Source: Rhodosporidiobolus odoratus
Lineage: Eukaryota; Basidiomycota; Microbotryomycetes; Sporidiobolales; Sporidiobolaceae
Assembly (NCBI GenBank): GCA_034387635.1
Contig: JAOANU010000001.1
Location: 1,736,001-1,800,000, forward strand
Length of the DNA stretch: 64,000 bases
Direction of reading: 5' to 3'
Position numbers and translations under genes: made by a program. Below the pieces are notes generated by a model. It saw only the letters and a program-made list of their open reading frames with translations. It searched no databases and was not told where the DNA came from. This document shows positions 36,601-62,854 of this stretch, in pieces (within the stretch, counting starts at the first letter, position 1; each line of letters starts with the position of its first letter).

Positions 36601-39011
36601 ACTTACTCGACAGTGCGTCAGGTAGTTGTGACCCGGAAGCGATGGATGATCAGATCGGCGAAGTCTTTGTCGAGATGGTGCGTTGCCTTCCTTTCCAGTG
36701 TATGCTATGAGCTCTCGACTAACTTAGTTCCCGCTCCATCTCCTTTCAGATTCCCCGCATCCAACAAGTCTATTCCACCTACTGCGCTCGCCATCACCGC
36801 GCTATCGTCCGCCTAAACGAACTCGAACCGAGCCTTCGCACCTACTTCTCCGAGTGCAAGACGCTTTCCCACGGCCGCACCAACGCCTGGGATCTCGCGT
36901 CCCTGCTCATCAAGCCTGTGCAGCGCTGCCTCAAGTATCCTCTGCTGCTCGACCAGATCCTTGCCGTCACGCCTGAAGATCATCCCGACTATCCGCTGCT
37001 GAAGCGCGCGAACACCGACATGCTCATGGTCGCCGAGCACATCAACGAGACTAAGAAGAAGCTGGAAGTCGTCGACCGCGTCGTCAACAAGGACAAGCAC
37101 TCCCAGCGCCGCGACGCATCCCGCGCCTCGATCTCGTCCACCGTCACCAAGAAACTTCTTCGCTCTTCGCAGAAGGCCAAGTCGGCTATGGGTTTCTCCG
37201 AGCAGCAAGGCGACGACCAGCTTTTCGACACGTTGTGCGCCCTGGTGGACTCGACTCGCAGCGGCGTCTTGCGGTTCTCGAACGAGATGCGAGATTGGAC
37301 GAAGAGCACGAGGACGGCACTCGAAGCGCAGGTCGCGATGGTGGAGGGGTGGATTGACATGTATGCCCCGATGGCGGGGGAACATAACGCCGCGAGCATG
37401 AGCCATCAACGCCTCTGCATCTTCCTCGACGAGGTCATCATCCCCATCATCGAAGGACCGTGGCGCGAGCTGGTGAGCACTGCTCTCTTGCTATCCTCCG
37501 AGTTTTGCTGACTGAGACTTTCCCTGCTTGCTCTCAGGACCACGAAGTTCGCCGGTCGCTCATTCTCAAGACGGATCATCTCCTTAGTCTCTTCGAGAGC
37601 CCACGTCAGGTCATCGCGAAGCGCAACGATAAGATGCTCGACCACCATCGCTACCTCGCCAAGAAGCTCCCCTCCGACAAACGTGGGTCGGAGGACTTCC
37701 TTGTGCTTTCGTCTCAGCTTCTCGAGGAGCTCCCTCGATTCCTCGGCAGCGTCTCTCGCTACTTCAACATCATCGTCGGCCATTTCGCCGGTGCCCAGGC
37801 CGCCTATCACGAAGCGGTTCAAGAGCAGTGGAACAGTTTCGCCGAGCAATGGCTTGAGCAGATCTCGGGCAACTCGTACGATGATATAGAAGCGTCCTTT
37901 GCTGCGCAGCACCAGCCACTCGCGCAGATGGTAGACACTCTGGCTGCCGGTCTCGGTCTCGTAGCCTCTCGTGCGTCTGTTTTGCCATTTCCGTTATTCT
38001 CTTTCCTCGCATTCGCTAATCACGCTCAATCTGGCTCCTGGCTGTACAGAAGGTGAAGCTCCGTCGAGCCGCAAGCGCTCTTCTCGCCTGTCGCGCATGT
38101 CCACCGTTTCCGCGACTGCGGATCCAACGTCGTCTCGTCTCTCCCTCTCTCATCAGCCTAGGCACCCTTCCGAGACCCGCCCACCCCAGAACCGCCAGTC
38201 GCTCGTGTCCGTCACTTCAGACTATTTCTCCGATCGGCGAGAAACGCGCGGCAGCCTCGGCTCGACCACCCGGGGTAGCGTCACGTCGGATTCGTCTGCA
38301 CCTTCCTTAGGGCCGGCCTCTACCCACGGTTCCATCAGTCCCTCCGGCCTCGTCAGTCCTCCGCTATTCCCGTCGCAACATCGTCAGCACACGAAGCAAG
38401 CCTCGGTCGACTCAGCTCTCCCCAAAGGCGTCGTCGTGTATGAGCCGCTCGGAGGTCACGACCGCCGTTCGATGGCCATCCGCTACGACGCCCCGCTTCC
38501 GTCCGTACCGCAGTATCAGGTCTCGCCGCTCGATCCCACAAGCGAAATGGCGCACTCCTCCTCTGCAGCAGGGGATGACTCGAGGATAGCCTACCGAGAG
38601 TCTCTCGACGTTCCTCGTCTGCGCGAGGTTCCCGGTCGTACGGCGAACGATCTCCGCGACAAGTATCTCTCGTCTTACAGCGTCTACATGCCGGCCGAAG
38701 ACGGGTACGCCGAGGAGGAAGAGTTCAACCAGGAGGGCCCGCTCTACATCGCGGAGGCGATGGCAGCCAGCGGCGCAGAAGCTGGGTCGTTCCGTGGTGG
38801 ATACCGTCTTCTCGCATTTAAGATGACCGACCGCCTTGAGGTCGAGCTGGAAGAGGCGGATTCTCTAGAGGGCGGGAGCGGTTGGCTGCTTGGGCGGTTG
38901 GTCGGCGGAGACGGCAGACTTGGGTGGGCGCGCACGGAGCACTTTGTCATGGTCGAAGATGAGGATCAGGAGGAGGAGGAGGAGGAAGGAGGCTTGGGAG
39001 AAGCGCAATAA
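33657..39011 (+). CDS. DH-BAR-SH3 Rho/Cdc42 guanine nucleotide exchange factor (Tuba/Gef1-like)
   Basis: The well-supported part starts at ATG 34659: exons 34659-36159, 36295-36677, 36750-37472, 37538-37970 and 38050-39011 give 1333 residues. After a long Ser/Pro-rich region comes a DH domain from about residue 460 (RRRVIRELVETETSYAVDM, then FVEMIPRIQQVYSTYC, LASLLIKPVQRCLKYPLLLD, the alpha-5-like block, and LKRANTDMLMVAEHINETKK). A BAR-like helical domain follows (about 780-1010: LFDTLCALVDSTRSGVLRF, SEDFLVLSSQLLEELPRFL). A Ser-rich stretch leads to a C-terminal SH3-like fold (YRLLAFKMTDRLEVELEEAD, GWLLGRLVGGDGRLGWARTE). This order matches DNMBP/Tuba and S. pombe Gef1, Cdc42 activators at membranes. 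Upstream, the same frame is open from 33657 except for one TAG at 34584-34586, so the N-terminus may be longer (see findings). Confidence 0.85.
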
Positions 39012-44163: not shown

Positions 44164-45526
44164 ATGTCGACTACCTTTGCTGGACTCGGACCCAAAATCA
44201 AGGCGCAATACGCTGAGGCGCTGAAGCGGGGATCAGTAGTCTACACGGACAGTGAGGTGTCCGAAATGGATGACGAGCAAACGGGGATCCCAGTGAGACT
44301 TCCCCCGCCGTCGAAGTCGAGAACGTAGCTGACGGTATCGTATAGTTCGAGGTCAGGTTCGCGCCCTCGCTAGCCAGGAAGCCCGAACGAGAGCAGGTTG
44401 AGGACGAGGCGAAGAAGCAGGAAGGAGAAGCGGATGCCAAGAAGCCATCGGATCCGCTGGCCTACCCTGGACAGCCTGATCTCCTGGTCGCAGAAGATGT
44501 CGTCAAGGAGGACGAGCAGGATGAGGGAGAGGCATTCTTGGTGTTGGTGCGTTTACGCTCCTCGTCTGTTTTTTCCGCTCTGCTTGCTGATTCTCCCTTC
44601 TTGCCTTGTCTCGACCAGCTCAACAAGTTCTGCATTATTCCTCGACACTTCTTGCTTGTGACAAAGGAGTTTGTCAAGCAGACGACACCGCTCTCCCCGA
44701 CTGAACTGCTCGCAGCGTGGTCGATTCTTAAGCAATTGGGCGGTCGAGAAAAGCATCTGGCCTTCTTCAACTGTGGTCAGAACAGCGGAGCCTCGTATGC
44801 ACTGCTCTCTTGTAGTCTCGCGCTCTGCTGACCTTGCTCGTTTTTTGCCAGACAACCACACAAGCAGTATATTTTCCTTGCTATCGCCTTAAACGATTCG
44901 TTCTGATCTGTCCCGTGCCCCTTCAGCTTGCAGTTCATTCCGATTGCCAACGGAGTCGCACCCTTCGACAACTTCATCGACGAGAACAAGCCGAAGACCA
45001 CGAGTTAGTATTTCTTCTCACCATCTTCGTCGGCTTTTTCTCCAGCGTTCTTTTCGCAGAAACACCCTTTCAGCTTCCCCTCCCTTATGCCACCTTTACG
45101 GCCATGATCCAGCCGCCTTCTTCAGGCCTCGCCGCCGACATCGCCACCCACCTCGGCGAGCGCTTCCTTTCCTGCCTCGACCTCATGATTGATCACCTCC
45201 GCCGGCTCGCCGAAGAACAGTCTTCCTCCTCCTCGTCCGCATCATCCCCCTCATTCCGCCTCTCCAACCTCTCCTACAACGTCATCCTCACCCAATCCTA
45301 CATCCACCTCGTCCCTCGCCGCGCCGAGAAGTACCTCACCGTGTCCGGTAGAGGCGTCTCGATCAACTCGCTTGGATTCGCTGGGATGGTGCTCGTCAAG
45401 GAGCAAGGGGCACTCGAGGAGATCAAGCAGGTTGGCGTGCTGGAGGTGCTCAAGAGTGTGGGTTATCCCGCGGCCGAGGGAGGAGAGAGCAATGTTCAAG
45501 AGATTGAGCCGGCGTTGCAGCAATAA
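44164..45526 (+). CDS. APA2: Diadenosine tetraphosphate (Ap4A) phosphorylase / ATP adenylyltransferase
   Basis: Six exons, 44164-44292, 44346-44546, 44619-44794, 44852-44866, 44927-45003 and 45060-45526, give 354 residues. FEVRFAPSLARKPE, LNKFCIIPRHFLLVTKEFV, PLSPTELLAAWSILKQL, FFNCGQNSGAS and then QPHKHLQFIPI spell the family signature; the His pair in H-x-H is the catalytic HIT-like motif. The C-terminal half has PLPYATFTAMI, FRLSNLSYNVILTQSYIHLV and INSLGFAGMVLVK. The enzyme splits Ap4A with phosphate to ADP and ATP and helps set dinucleoside polyphosphate levels. A 15-nt exon (44852-44866) supplies the catalytic motif (finding). An acidic insert (EDEAKKQEGEADAKKPSDP) sits early in the protein. 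Confidence 0.93.
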
Positions 45527-46976: not shown

Positions 46977-49900
46977 ATGGCCACCCCAATCCATTCCATG
47001 TATTCCGCCTCGGGCGAATACGACAACTCCGACCCCGCCGCCCACTCGACCAACTTCTCCCGCCCCAGCGGCTACGGCAACCCCTCTCCGACCGGATCCC
47101 ACGAGGACCTCGAGCCTTCCTCCGCCGACCCCCTACACGGCCAATTCGCCACTGGCGGAGATGGCGCCCGTCCCGATTCCTACGTCGACTCGGACCTCGA
47201 AATGCGCAAGTACCAGGGCCTGTCGGCTTCGGGCGTCGCAGGGTACCAGGCTGTCGGAGATCTGTCAGAACCGGGTAGTCCGGTGCAGGAAAGCTCGTAC
47301 GAGCGCAGTCACGAAAGTGGTAGCAGCGGTACCAAGGTCGACCAAGGTTCGACTTCGCGCCTGCCGCGACCCGAAACGATGAGCAGCGAAGGAAGCTACG
47401 ACGCGAGGCACAACCAGAACGTACGCTGTGCTTTCCCGTCTACATCGCTAGGAGCTCCACATACTCATTCTTTCCTTATTCTCCCTTCTTCCGGTTCTCC
47501 TCTGTTGCAGTCCGAGTCCGGTCACGGTCACGGTCAGTACGGCGGTGCTTACGCCGGATATGCCGACAACGGCGCGCTCTACCAGCAAGGCTCGCCCAGT
47601 TCGCACTTCGGCAGGCATCGGGAAGGATCGTTCGGTGTCGAGTCCGGCCGTGCTTCGACCATCGGCACCGACCACGTTCCGGCGCACAACATGCCGCAGA
47701 ACTCGTCGCGTGTTGCGCTCAACCAGGACTGGCGCAACTCGTACGACCAGGGCAGCGAGATGAGCCGGAACATGACCATTGCGGAGGTTGCCCCTGGCAA
47801 GGAAGGTTACGGGCGCGCCGGTTCTTCGTACGGCGACGAGAAGAAGGATTTGGCGCTTGCCGATCCCAACGCTGCGGCCAGCTACGCGCCCCTTGCCCCA
47901 GGCTCGCCCGCTGTCGGCGGCGCCCCGCCTAAAGCTGGTGCTCGCGACCCTCCTGCAGTCGTAATCTCGAGGACGAACCGCCTCGACTGGATCGACGGTC
48001 TTCGTGGTATCGCTTCGATCATCATCTTCACCCATCACTTTGCCGATCTTACCTGGTCGCAAACGCACCCGAACACTCTCGCTGAAGGTTCTTTCCAGGG
48101 TATCTTGAGGTAAGCAGCGCCTTTCTCCATCCGTCGCATGTGGTCGAAACGTCGTCTTACCGTTCTCGCCGCTCCCAGGAATGGTCAGCTCGCCGTCGGC
48201 ATGTACTTCCTTCTCGGTGGTCGTGTTCTCGCCGCGTCTTTCCTCAAGTCGGCCTTCACCGTCCCAAAGGCGCCCGTCGTGCATGGCGATGATGAGCCGG
48301 AAAAGCCCGTCGTGGCCCGCAAGCCTCCTGGCCCACGTTGGCTTACCCTTTCCTCCTCTCTCTTCCGTCGTTCAATCCGTCTCGCCTTCCCGGCCATCGT
48401 CGTCGGCTTCATCCAATGGCAGGTCTGCGCCACCGGCCTCATGAACACCACAATGCTAGCTGAACAGCAGTTCCTCTCCCCGTCCGCCCTCTGGGTTCCG
48501 ACCTGGTGCAACATTGGCGACTTCGCCGGTTTCCTCCAGTTCTGCCTCGACCTTTTCACCAACGGCAACCATCAGTACATGCTCACCGTCGGTTCCGCCC
48601 TGTGGACCACCTACGATCAATTCTGGGGATCCGTTCTCGTCTACGTCGTCGTCGCTACCCTTACTCCCCTTCCGTACCGCGGCCGTTACTCGCTCTACTT
48701 GGCGATCTGCGTTGCGCTCTGGTGGATCAACTCGCCGAACATGCTGTACGTCGATCCTCACCTCCCCCGAAGAACACCGTTGGCCAGCTATACTGACGCT
48801 CACATTCTCCTGCAGCTACATGATCGGTTTGTGGTGCGCCGACTTCTACGCGTCGGGCTTCGTTCGCAAAATCCAGGACCACTGGAAGTGGACTGTCGGT
48901 ATCGAAGTCTGCGCCATGGCTCTCGCGCTCGCCATGATCTCCGGTGGAACCAAGGTCGCTGGTCCCGCCAACCGCGCTCTCGCCTCCGTCACCGTCTACG
49001 AGGGCAAGTACGGATGGAACCCGTCCTACGTTTGGCCGCAGTACATGATCACCAGTAATTGGTGCGTTTCCTCCTTTCCCCTTCTCCCTCACCGCAGAAA
49101 CTCGTGACTGACTTGACTTTCTCGCAGGATCCCGCCTACGATGGTCCTCGTCTGGGTCGAACTCTCGCACTGCATGCAGTGGTTCATGAGTTGGGGCCTT
49201 TTCACCTGGGTCGGCAAGGTCTCGTATGGTTTCTACCTCATGCAGTTCCTCACCATCTACGGCCTCATGCCCCACCTCGTCCTCCACTTCTCGTCTTACG
49301 AGAGTTCCTACTGGAACGTCGTCACGCCGACTTACATCATCTGCTTGATGTTCAATTTCCTCGTCGCATGGTACGTTCCGTTCCAAGTCTGCTCGCTAGG
49401 TTCCGAGCTAATTTTCCCTTCCTTTGCGCAGGATCTCCTACCACCTTCTCGACCGTATCGGTCTCAAACTCGGAAAGTGGATCTGGGACGGTCTCTTCGT
49501 CTCCAAGCCCAACACCGCCGGTTCGCTCCCTGTCAAGATGGTTCGCCACGCCGGTTGGTGCGTCACGAAGGGTCCGATCGTCTTCTTCCAGGGTCAAGGC
49601 AAGAGCTGGTCGACCAAGTACAAGTCGTTCAGGGAGGGTCTTCACACTGCCATGAACTGGCGTACCCCGACTACCCGTCCCGCCGTTCCCGACCCTACCG
49701 ACCCCGAGGTCCTCGCCCAGCTCCACTCCACCAGGTGGACTTCGGATCTTAGCGGCAACCACGAGGCGATGCGCACCCGCAGGCTCCTTCGCCTCCAGTC
49801 CTTCATGTGGATCCCGCACCTCTTCCTCATCCCCGGTCTTACCGTCCTCTGGGTTCTCACGCACCCTATGGGTAACTGGACCTACGATGCGCTCACCTTC

Positions 49901-51329
49901 TCCTCGCTCTGGCGTTTCGTCTGGGTTCTTTCCCTCCCGAACTGCTTCTTCGCTTGGCTCGGTTTCATCACCCCCGACATTGCGCCCAACCCCGGCACGA
50001 TGGACAACAAGCCCGTTCACCGCGAGTACATCCGCAACTTCTTCGTCGTCCTCGTTACCAAGGGTTCCAACGAGGCCGCCGTCCGTCGTGGTTACGGCAA
50101 GCTGATCAAGCTCGAGAAGTTCCACCCTGCTGTCAAGGTCGTCGTCCTTACCGATGAGCCCTACGTCTACCCGGATCTCCAGAACATCGTCTGCCCCAAG
50201 TCGTACAAGTCGCCGCTTGGCAAGGCCAAGTACAAGGCCCGCGCGTTGGATTACTTCCGTTACCACGTCTCGCTCGGTGTCTACGATTGGATTCTGCACA
50301 TGTAAGCGTTCTCCTTTGCTCCTTCTTCGCTCACGACGCTGACACTATTTGAATGACAGGGACGAAGAATCCGTCACCGACGCTGAGTCGCTCCGCCACT
50401 GCATCGAGTTCATCCGTTACACTCCTCACCACTTCGGTCAGGGTATCATTCTTTACAACGTACGTCTTCCTGCTCCTCGTCGTGGTAGGCAGACCCAGCT
50501 CACCTAGACTCTGCTACTCTCCACAGGGTACTGGGTACTGGGACAACTGGTACTTCACCGTCGCCGATGGTATTCGTGTCGGCGACGATCTCGCCCGTTT
50601 CCATCTTCAAAACACGATCATCAACCGACCCGTCTTCGGTGTCCACGGATCTTTCCTCATGACCAACGGTGAGATGGAGAACGAGTGTACCTGGGACTTC
50701 GGCTCTCTCGCCGAGGACTTCGAGTTCTCGCAGGACGCCTGGCGCCGCGGTTTCACTTGCGGTCGTATCCACGGTATCGTTCGTGAGCAGTCGCCCACCA
50801 CTCTTCGCGATTTCCTCAAGCAGCGTCGTCGTTGGTTCATGGTACGTTCCCTTCTTTTCACTATCAAGCGCGCTGGCTCACCGTAACTTTCTCCTATACA
50901 GGGTATCCGTGACATCAAGGGTCTTTACGGTCTTCCTCACCTCGCCATCAACCTCTGGATTGTCGGTGTCTTCACCCTCGGTGCCACCATCGTCAACCTG
51001 CCGCTCGGCTTCATTGAGCACTCGCTCACCCCGCTCTGGATCGCCGTATGCGCCAACTTCTGCTTCATCACCTTCTTTGTATGTCGTCGTTCAGTCCATA
51101 CCCTCGAGAGAGCTTGAGCTAATCTCTTTCTCCTTTCCTCCAGACCCTCTACCTCTGGGGCATCTTCTTCCAAGAACTCGACTTTGGCCAAACCTGGTGG
51201 AAGATCCCCATTCACCTTGTCTGCGCCATCATCATCCAGCCGTTCGCTTCCGTCGCCGAGGGTCTCTCGGCTATCTGGGCCATGGCTTCGGAGGACTTCG
51301 GCAAGTTCGAGGTCATTGTCAAGAAGTAG
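46977..51329 (+). CDS. Fusion protein: acyltransferase-3 domain joined to Egghead-like family 2 glycosyltransferase
   Basis: Ten exons, 46977-47420, 47511-48109, 48179-48745, 48816-49061, 49128-49370, 49432-50301, 50360-50459, 50527-50841, 50902-51078 and 51144-51329, give 1248 residues; every phase agrees and there is no stop between domains. Residues 1-300 are disordered (Ser/Gly/Tyr rich). About 302-720 is an acyltransferase-3 (OafA/NodX) domain: RTNRLDWIDGLRGIASIIIF followed by THHFADL, NGQLAVGMYFLLGGRVLAAS, RRSIRLAFPAIVVGF and later helices ending DRIGLKLGKWIWDG. After a linker with two membrane segments (near 800-880) comes a GT2 domain resembling Egghead/BRE-3 beta-mannosyltransferases: RNFFVVLVTKGS, VVVLTDEP, YDWILHMDEESVTDA (DxD-like), HHFGQGIILYN, GSLAEDFEFSQDAWRRG, and FLKQRRRWFMGIRD (QxxRW), then C-terminal helices. 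It probably makes and acylates a membrane or extracellular glycan or glycolipid; substrate is unknown. Confidence 0.92.
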
Positions 51330-60685: not shown

Positions 60686-62854
60686 ATGCCCTCCGCCTCG
60701 AAAGTCGCTCAGTTGTTCTGGTACGCCTTAACTCGACCGACAGAGGTCAAGGCCATCATCACCTACAAGGTCAGCCCGTTCTTCTCGTTCTGAGTCGACC
60801 GCGACCAGGACTCACCGCTTTGTCCGTGCAGATGTGGCGCGACCCGCTCAACACCATCGAAAATAACCCGGAAGCCGGAATGTCAGTTCGCGTCATCGTC
60901 TCCGCCGGCCCATTGCCGTTGCCCGCCGGATGAGCGCGAGCACGAAGTACTGACGAGTGTCAATGCTATAGGGACCGAGAAAGCATGAAGAAGTGCTGGG
61001 GCTACCTCGACGCGACTTCCCGAAGTTTCGCTGCCGTTATTCACGAGCTTGATGGAGAGCTCTCTCGAGTGGTGCGTGCCCCCCCCCCCAGACTGCTCTC
61101 CTTGCGCGACACGAGCTCACCCGCGCCCGGCTTCGAAGGTCGCCCTTTTCTACCTCGCACTCCGTGGCCTCGACACCATCGAAGACGACATGACCATCCC
61201 GATCGAGAAGAAGGCGCCGCTGCTCGAGAACTTTTACAAGTTCCTGGAGCAGGATGGGTGGAATTTCAAGGAGTGTGAGTTACCTCGTCGAGGTCTACCC
61301 GACATGATTTCGCTCATATCAAGTTTTGCCTGAAACAGCGGGACCCAACGAAAAGGACAGGGCGCTACTGGAAGGATTCGAAGTCGTCGTAGAGGAGTTC
61401 CAGCGATTAGATGAGGGGTGTGTTCATATCCGCTTCGATTTCTCCAGCTCGGGAGAAACTGACCTTCGCAACTTGCAGTTACCGGAGCGCCATTTCAGAC
61501 ATCACAAAGAAGATGGGCGCTGGCATGTCGCGATATGCCAAGGTTCACGCTGAGAACGGTGGCAAGTTCTCGGTCGACACCCTTGCCTCCTTCGACCTCT
61601 ACTGCCACTTCGTCGCCGGATTGGTCGGCGAAGGTCTTTCTCGTCTTTTCTCCACTTCGGGCAAGGAGTCAAAGTACCTCGGCGATCAGCTCACCCTCTC
61701 CAACTCGATGGGCCTCATGCTACAGAAGACCAACATTCTGCGAGACTTCCGCGAGGATACCGACGAAGGGCGCGTCTTCTGGCCGGCCGAGATCTGGTCA
61801 AAATACGTCCAGAAGCCGGAAGATCTGTACAAGAAGGGCAACGAAGAGAAGGCGCTGTGGGCCTTGAGTGAGATGACGGTCGATGCCTTGTCTCACGCTA
61901 CCGACGCGCTCGACTACCTCACCCTCCTCGGCAACCAATCCGTTTTCAACTTCTGCGCCATCCCACAAGCCATGGCGATCGCAACTCTCGACGCGTGCTT
62001 CATGAACCCGGCCGTCATGCACCGCAACGTCAAGATTCGAAAAGGCGAGGCTGTCGGTGTGCGTCTAACTTCCCGAGCCTGTTTTTCTTCCTGCTTGTAC
62101 TCACCGCACCACCGTCTATCGCGCGCCAACAGCTCATCCTTGCCGCTACGAATCCTCGAGATGTCGCTTTCATGTTCCGCGATTACGTTCGCAAGATCCA
62201 CGCCCGGGCTCGCGCGAACGACCCGAGCTTCATCAAGATTGCTGTCCTCGCTGGAAGGGTAAGTTGTCTCTCTCCTGCGCGATCTCCGTCACACACCCGC
62301 GATGCTCCCTTCCGCTTACCTCGTACCGCTGCTCCACACTTTCCTTCCGCTCTCGCATCTCTGCTTATTGTGCTAATCCCGTCTTCCCCGCGCAGATTGA
62401 ACAATGGACCGAGTCACGATACCCTTCCTTCATCAAACCCGGTCAGCCAATCCCGACGTCCTCGGAAGATTGGCAACCAGGCATGGATGCGCGTATCAAG
62501 CAGCTTCCGGGGCCGAGTCAAGAAGTGCTCGACAAGCGGTTCAAGGCGCAGCAAATGGGTGAAAAGCAGAAGATGACTACGGAGGACGTGTGTCGCGCCT
62601 ACCCTCTTACCATCCGCCTCTTTTGCCGTGACACTGACCTGTTTCTTCGCCTGCGGCTTCTACAGTACAAGTTCCTCGCCTACCTCATGTTCGGCATCTT
62701 TGGCGTCGTGGGCGGGATCTTTGGCCTGTCAACGTTTGGCATTTGGTGGTTCTTTGGTCGGGAAGGCGCTCGGTATGGCGCGACGAAGGCGATCGAGAGC
62801 GCGGCGCACGCTACCAAGGCGGTCATGAGTCAGGGGATCAAGGGGGAGCTGTAA
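60686..62854 (+). CDS. ERG9: Squalene synthase (farnesyl-diphosphate farnesyltransferase)
   Basis: Nine exons from ATG 60686 ([20 protein letters not shown]): 60686-60769, 60832-60881, 60972-61071, 61139-61274, 61339-61417, 61479-62058, 62133-62258, about 62396-62587 and 62667-62854. Motifs in order: [38 protein letters not shown] (first aspartate-rich DTIEDD); [37 protein letters not shown] (second aspartate-rich region, NADPH side); [27 protein letters not shown]; and a C-terminal membrane anchor ([20 protein letters not shown]). It joins two farnesyl diphosphates to squalene on the ER, the first committed step to ergosterol, competing with carotenoid synthesis for prenyl diphosphates in red yeasts. 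Intron 3 has a C11 run (61079-61089). Confidence 0.96.
61079..61089 (+). repeat. Poly-C run (C11) in ERG9 intron 3
   Basis: Eleven C just after the intron's GTGCGTG donor. It is unlikely to affect coding but is a slippage site. Confidence 0.7.

What the first reader, a model, noticed from the sequence alone, without database searches (positions are those of the whole stretch)
46977..51329. Acyltransferase-3 fused to an Egghead-like GT2 in one membrane protein
Seen: ten exons in consistent phase encode 1248 residues with an OafA/NodX-type acyltransferase (LDWIDGLRG, FTHHFADL, RRSIRLAF) and then a GT2 with DEES, AEDFEF and QRRRW motifs resembling Egghead/BRE-3. The junction exon (49432-50301) is a single open exon that carries the last acyltransferase helix and the start of the GT part, so the fusion is not a gene-calling artefact. 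Known: each domain exists alone; OafA-type enzymes O-acylate glycans and Egghead makes Man-beta-Glc-ceramide. Inference: coupled synthesis and O-acylation of a glycan or glycolipid, for example an acetylated extracellular polysaccharide or polyol/glycolipid of red yeasts. I know of no described enzyme with this architecture.
Basis: partly seen in the sequence, partly recalled or inferred. Interest (0 to 1): 0.92.

Follow-up and report, generated by a model that had tools for sequence, protein, structure and literature searches.

The report
Fungal sugar-transferase fused to sugar-acylating enzyme
A red-yeast gene really does encode one membrane protein that joins an acyl-group transferase to a sugar-polymerase-like glycosyltransferase, and the same fusion occurs in distant fungi, which suggests a single machine that both builds a glycan and decorates it.

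The parts
46977..47420 (+). exon 1, aa 1-148, low-complexity N-terminus
   Evidence: splice and frame reconstruction; the first 300 aa vary more than both domains in the 10 of 12 compared relatives where they could be scored against AT3 and GT2 with 80 or more shared residues or nearly so
47511..48109 (+). exon 2, aa 149-348; end of N-terminal region, AT3 helix 1 with DxxR and R-X10-H
48003..48038 (+). R313 to H324: R-X10-H motif of AT3 helix 1
   Evidence: R313 in 43 of 43 and H324 in 39 of 43 fused rows that have residues there; 6 more fused rows lack helix 1; essentiality of this motif in OafA from PMC7448272 passages
48179..48745 (+). exon 3, aa 348-537; AT3
48369..48380 (+). R412xxR415: RxxR motif of AT3 helix 3
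   Evidence: R412 in 49 of 49, R415 in 48 of 49 fused rows
48816..49061 (+). exon 4, aa 537-619; AT3
49128..49370 (+). exon 5, aa 619-700; AT3 helices 9 and 10 (first part of 10)
49432..50301 (+). exon 6, aa 700-990: junction exon; end of AT3 helix 10, linker helices, two GT2 N-terminal membrane helices, D941
   Evidence: single open frame of 297 codons
47985..49441 (+). AT3 domain, aa 307-703 (PF01757), introns included
50360..50459 (+). exon 7, aa 990-1023, begins with DEES (D991)
50527..50841 (+). exon 8, aa 1024-1128, with E1086-D1087 and Q1122RRRW1126
   Evidence: D991, E992, E993, E1086, Q1122, R1125 in 75 of 75 rows, D1087 and W1126 in 74 of 75
50902..51078 (+). exon 9, aa 1129-1187, C-terminal GT2 membrane helices
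51144..51329 (+). exon 10, aa 1188-1248 and stop
50288..51149 (+). GT2 domain, aa 986-1189 (PF13632), introns included

Best explanation
A bifunctional polytopic membrane enzyme. SHOWN: one open reading frame holds an AT3/TmAT half and then a membrane GT2 half, both with their main catalytic motifs. INFERRED: ten AT3 helices leave the linker on the cytosolic side, so the following two-helix hairpin places the GT2 catalytic domain in the cytosol, where it uses a nucleotide sugar to build or extend a beta-linked glycan, probably a wall or extracellular polysaccharide or its lipid-linked precursor. The AT3 half binds acyl-CoA (most likely acetyl-CoA) from the cytosol, presents the acyl group through its pore and O-acylates the product on the luminal or outer face. 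Fusion keeps synthase and acylase at a fixed 1:1 ratio and side by side.
Against: No activity, product, localisation or topology is known. H324 is lost in 4 of 43 fused rows (Calocera P0030 Ala, Paraphysoderma P0039 Gln and P0042 Ser, unnamed P0049 Asn), so acylation may not be needed in every member. In Calocera the AT3 score falls below Pfam's cut-off, 28.4 against 31. The Phe of the helix-2 FxxxxG motif (important in OatA and HGSNAT by PMC12423673) is Tyr here (Y357) and Phe in only 13 of 45 rows. Ser of SxxxY in helix 9 is replaced in 14 of 48 rows. Foldseek's own 50 best rows are glycosyltransferases; the HGSNAT match comes from the VIA second look. The AT3-GT2 distance correlation is expected from shared ancestry alone. 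The genome has another candidate O-acetylase, Cas1_AcylT. D, DxD-like, ED and QxxRW motifs do not separate polymerases from single-sugar transferases (recalled: ceramide glucosyltransferase has them too).
Confidence: 0.55

Rival explanations
1. Glycolipid enzyme: the GT2 half adds a single sugar (for example beta-mannose, as Egghead does by recall) to a lipid such as glucosylceramide, and the AT3 half acylates that glycolipid.
Against: No Egghead or BRE-3 sequence was available for comparison, and no row is named egghead among the 120 of 175 rows listed. Cellulose and hyaluronan synthases match equally well (differences under 1 Z are ties).
Confidence: 0.25
2. The AT3 half is mainly structural or regulatory (an acyl-CoA-sensing membrane anchor) and the protein works as a glycosyltransferase only.
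For: The R-X10-H histidine is replaced in 4 of 43 fused rows. GT2 is more conserved than AT3 in 12 of 12 compared relatives. Many chytrid gene models hold the GT2 without AT3.
Against: H324 is kept in 39 of 43 rows, DxxR in 43 of 43, R412 in 49 of 49; the AT3 profile match spans the whole domain.
Confidence: 0.15
3. Artefact: two neighbouring genes wrongly joined.
For: Such joins probably exist in the database, for example the Puccinia model P0058, an AT3-like start that runs into a CNNM domain.
Against: One 870-nt exon spans the junction. 47 of 58 homologues, from many genomes, are annotated with both domains. Two transcript-like contigs carry the whole frame. Linker identity to P0001 is 62-76% in four relatives that I place in the same class by recall (P0002, P0003, P0006, P0014).
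Confidence: 0.02

Closest known systems
AT3-SGNH O-acetyltransferases (OafA, OafB, OatA)
   Same: AT3 half with DxxR, R-X10-H and RxxR; fusion to a second catalytic unit
   Different: Partner there is an extracytoplasmic SGNH domain reached by an 11th helix (PMC7448272, PMC9558356 passages); here it is a membrane GT2 with a predicted cytosolic catalytic domain
HGSNAT and the TmAT superfamily
   Different: HGSNAT N-acetylates a heparan sulfate end (abstract); PMC12423673 names SGNH, NRF and racemase fusions and its main text does not use the word glycosyltransferase (passages and term counts)
Cellulose and hyaluronan synthases (BcsA, CesA, CvHAS, XlHAS1)
   Different: 7-15% sequence identity in the structural alignments; three C-terminal membrane helices in the model; product unknown; fused to AT3
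Egghead/BRE-3 (GT2)
   Same: Depositor names of several family members
   Different: Not compared: no Egghead sequence at hand; Egghead is not known to me (recall) to be fused to an acyltransferase
ZtGT2/Cps1-type fungal GT2
   Same: Fungal GT2 of patchy distribution, proposed to make an outer-wall polysaccharide (PMC5653360 passages)
   Different: Not compared by sequence; that paper says P. graminis and U. maydis have no similar protein, while P. graminis and Ustilago bromivora are listed with the fusion (U. maydis itself was not shown)
Cas1p/CASD1
   Same: TmAT-type sugar O-acetylation in fungi and animals
   Different: Another Pfam family (PF07779), separate gene in this genome, SGNH partner in CASD1

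Membership tests
AT3 / Acyl_transf_3 (PF01757), TmAT superfamily | Profile match over the whole domain | tested here: met
   50.2 bits against cut-off 31, positions 2-325 of 326
AT3 / Acyl_transf_3 (PF01757), TmAT superfamily | DxxR and R-X10-H in helix 1 | tested here: met
   D310, R313, H324; in relatives 43 of 43 (D, R) and 39 of 43 (H)
AT3 / Acyl_transf_3 (PF01757), TmAT superfamily | RxxR in helix 3 | tested here: met
   R412, R415; 49 of 49 and 48 of 49 rows
AT3 / Acyl_transf_3 (PF01757), TmAT superfamily | FxxxxG in helix 2 | tested here: inconclusive
   G362 kept (44 of 46 rows), but the Phe position is Tyr here (Y357; Phe in 13 of 45 rows)
AT3 / Acyl_transf_3 (PF01757), TmAT superfamily | Ten-helix TmAT fold | tested here: met
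AT3 / Acyl_transf_3 (PF01757), TmAT superfamily | Acyl transfer to an extracytosolic sugar | not testable with these tools
   needs biochemistry
Membrane GT2 (processive beta-synthase type) | Profile match and D, D(E)E, ED, QxxRW | tested here: met
   PF13632 100.6 bits; motifs in 74-75 of 75 rows
Membrane GT2 (processive beta-synthase type) | Fold with flanking membrane helices | tested here: met
Membrane GT2 (processive beta-synthase type) | Makes and translocates a polymer | not testable with these tools
   motifs and fold do not decide processivity
Egghead/BRE-3 beta-1,4-mannosyltransferase | Closest sequence relationship to Egghead | not tested
   no Egghead sequence was fetched; only depositor names support it
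Egghead/BRE-3 beta-1,4-mannosyltransferase | GDP-mannose to glucosylceramide activity | not testable with these tools
   needs biochemistry
AT3-SGNH fused acetyltransferases | SGNH domain after an 11th helix | tested here: not met
   three Pfam families at E up to 1, none SGNH/GDSL; the partner is GT2
ZtGT2/Cps1 family | Sequence orthology to ZtGT2 or Cps1 | not tested
   no ZtGT2 or Cps1 sequence was fetched; distribution per PMC5653360 differs

The most novel reading that the evidence does not exclude
An early-fungal synthase-acylase: one protein that polymerises an outer-wall or matrix polysaccharide and O-acylates it as it leaves the membrane, kept from chytrids to rusts and smuts, and serving as the missing counterpart of ZtGT2/Cps1 in lineages that lack it. 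To my knowledge it would be the first polysaccharide synthase with a built-in acylase.
Probability: 0.2. Interest if true: 0.87.

Novelty: new variant of a known kind. Interest (0 to 1): 0.64.

Why it matters
Acylation of wall glycans can change charge, recognition and enzyme resistance, and few fungal acylases are assigned (by recall). A fused synthase-acylase points to a defined, acylated fungal glycan not yet assigned to a gene, gives a single gene to delete in a tractable red yeast, and adds a new partner to the AT3 repertoire. Its presence in rusts and smuts, two of which are reported to lack ZtGT2-type synthases, makes the question of what replaces those synthases testable.

Tried and rejected
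Gene-calling artefact: rejected (see rivals). Bacterial source of the fusion: 29 prokaryotic loci encode GT2 relatives (best 40% identity, a cyanobacterial MAG) and one viral contig. A motif screen of these 30 loci gave five hits in four loci (L012, L018, L024, L025) that read to me as unlike AT3, and none in the other 26. An AT3 family search was run on the source genomes or records of 16 of the 30 loci: 10 of 16 have AT3 somewhere; I did not match contigs to loci beyond the motif screen. Solved structures by sequence: none with the full protein, the 17-row alignment or the GT2 alignment. NCBIfam: no family for P0009 or P0066. Viral structures: 8 matches at E up to 0.001, not followed further. 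Gene cluster: I scanned 19 of the 33 stop-to-stop frames of 250 or more codons and one of 236; the 10 of 20 with a Pfam match look like housekeeping or signalling genes, so no biosynthetic cluster is evident, but most exons were not scanned.

Origin of the fusion: in the GT2 tree of 75 rows (quick method) the 49 fused and 2 partial rows sit with P0060 and P0125 on one side of a 100* branch, against 22 others ('fused' = over 70% of the AT3 columns filled). P0060 is a truncated fusion by its N-terminus. P0125 (Rhizoclosmatium) starts at the linker and may be a true standalone or a clipped model. Holding the 51 rows together is not rejected (p-AU 0.376), which does not prove one origin. Rows left out of that tree include fragments, odd models and near copies (P0008, P0027, P0031, P0036, P0038, P0041, P0044-P0046, P0054, P0057, P0058, P0063, P0077, P0078) and most of the other standalone GT2 rows. 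The last 55 of 175 rows were never shown, so absence from Ascomycota or Mucoromycota is not claimed.

Beta-mannan of Rhodotorula as the product: recalled as a known exopolysaccharide; the listings of two paper searches gave no support or contradiction. R. toruloides functional genomics (PMC5922974, term search of the main text) does not use the words egghead or mannan and has one passage on 'three probable glycosyltransferases', not identified there.

Literature: ten searches. Judged by titles and starts of abstracts in the listings, none describes an AT3-GT2 fusion; no paper of the library holds both Pfam accessions. Papers outside this open-licence library were not seen.

Full report
What is there. 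The window lies in a 24.8-Mb genome of 45 contigs. At 46977-51329 on the + strand ten exons with nine GT-AG introns of 58-90 nt encode 1248 residues. A deposited protein of Rhodosporidiobolus odoratus, a Sporidiobolales species, has the same length and differs at 6 of 1248 residues, so an independent annotation reached the same protein.

Domains. Pfam-A gives PF01757 Acyl_transf_3 at 307-703 (E 2.5e-13, 2-325 of 326 profile positions) and PF13632 Glyco_trans_2_3 at 986-1189 (E 1.3e-28); PF13641 is below its cut-off. The first 300 residues are variable and short or absent in several relatives. Exon 6 (49432-50301) spans the junction in one open frame.

Not an artefact. 47 of 58 proteins carry both Pfam domains by the database's own annotation; 5 carry only PF13632, 5 only PF01757, 1 neither. 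Two contigs hardly longer than the frame, P0008 (3702 coding nt of 3978) and P0028 (3729 of 4155), hold the fusion without introns; since the window gene has nine introns, I read these as assembled transcripts (inference).

Distribution. Alignment A3 holds 75 of the 182 proteins seen; 49 of its rows count as fused (over 70% of the AT3 columns filled). By the organism names, 25 of the 49 are Pucciniomycotina, 6 Ustilaginomycotina, 1 Agaricomycotina (Calocera), 6 Chytridiomycota, 4 Blastocladiomycota and 7 unnamed. I looked up the lineage of eight species; the rest are placed by recall. The listed relatives of the GT2 half without AT3 are, where named, almost all chytrid proteins, most of them 39-46% identical, plus one rotifer protein; more distant ones are prokaryotic. 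In a GT2 tree all fused rows fall on one side of a fully supported branch, and one clade of fused rows is not rejected. An ancient single fusion is the simplest reading, but loss, transfer and the unseen rows leave it open.

Catalytic residues. Passages of PMC7448272 report that OafA R14, H25, R69 and R72 are essential, and PMC12423673 names DxxR, FxxxxG and RxxR as conserved features. Here these are D310/R313, H324 and R412/R415. Among fused rows with residues at the site: D310 and R313 43 of 43, H324 39 of 43, R412 49 of 49, R415 48 of 49. H324 is lost in Calocera, in two Paraphysoderma paralogues and in one unnamed protein, so some members may not acylate. The Phe of FxxxxG is Tyr here (Y357) and Phe in only 13 of 45 rows; its Gly (G362) is kept in 44 of 46. 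Ser of the helix-9 SxxxY is replaced in 14 of 48 rows. A further arginine, R363, right after G362, is present in 45 of 46 rows with residues there and may be a family mark. In GT2, D941 is in 74 of 75 rows (1 gap), D991, E992, E993 and E1086 in 75 of 75, D1087 in 74, Q1122 and R1125 in 75, W1126 in 74 (1 gap).

Mechanism. AT3 proteins are thought to pass acyl groups from cytosolic acyl-CoA to extracytosolic sugars. Ten AT3 helices return the chain to the cytosol; the linker helices and the next two-helix hairpin then place the GT2 catalytic domain in the cytosol, where nucleotide sugars are. This topology needs no extra helix, unlike AT3-SGNH proteins, which add an eleventh. Synthesis on one face and acylation on the other by one protein follows as the most economical model; each step of it is inference.

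What product? The name Egghead is the depositors'. Structure fits polysaccharide synthases about as well as PcManGT. King et al. 2017 (PMC5653360, passages only; [quoted passage not shown] The fusion is listed for P. graminis (P0023, P0025) and for Ustilago bromivora (P0048); U. maydis itself was not shown. That is a suggestive but untested link. Against a simple swap: by the same paper some chytrids and many Agaricomycotina do have ZtGT2 relatives, and I found the fusion in some chytrids and in Calocera.

In the own genome I found no second copy, and the gene carries the only PF01757 match found. Several other PF13632 matches look to me like chitin synthases, from recalled signature motifs. 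A Cas1_AcylT gene is also present, so this is not the only candidate O-acetylase.

Verdict. Both halves belong to known kinds; their combination, conserved across three fungal phyla, is not described in any paper that ten searches of an open-licence library listed, as far as titles and abstracts show.

Noticed in passing
P0037 and P0054 (Paraphysoderma sedebokerense): P0037 (1394 aa) has two Acyl_transf_3 stretches before the GT2; P0054 (1374 aa) has a similar N-terminal extension by eye although Pfam calls only one. Either AT3-AT3-GT2 proteins or merged tandem genes; five family members were listed from this species.
   Followed up: partly
G000:C22:99726-100837 (-): A separate Cas1_AcylT (PF07779) gene, another candidate glycan O-acetyltransferase, lies elsewhere in the same genome.
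   Followed up: no
window 61411-62259 (+): Part of a squalene synthase gene (TIGR01559, E 8.6e-81, 271.7 bits against a cut-off of 286.75, probably because only one exon was scanned).
   Followed up: no
window 44816-45523 (+): ATP adenylyltransferase C-terminal domain (PF09830), the nearest upstream frame scanned that has a Pfam match.
   Followed up: no
window 36723-37508 (+): RhoGEF domain (PF00621, E 2e-21).
   Followed up: no
P0058 (Puccinia graminis model): An AT3-like N-terminal part by eye runs into a CNNM domain; probably a chimeric gene model.
   Followed up: partly
P0177 (Brachionus calyciflorus): A rotifer GT2 without AT3 is 44% identical to the fused GT2 part over 88% of it; its branch is long (1.23) in the tree. 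Whether this is a shared old gene or a transfer is open.
   Followed up: no
position R363 of the protein (exon 3): An arginine right after the conserved helix-2 glycine is present in 45 of 46 fused rows with residues there; it could mark this AT3 subfamily.
   Followed up: no
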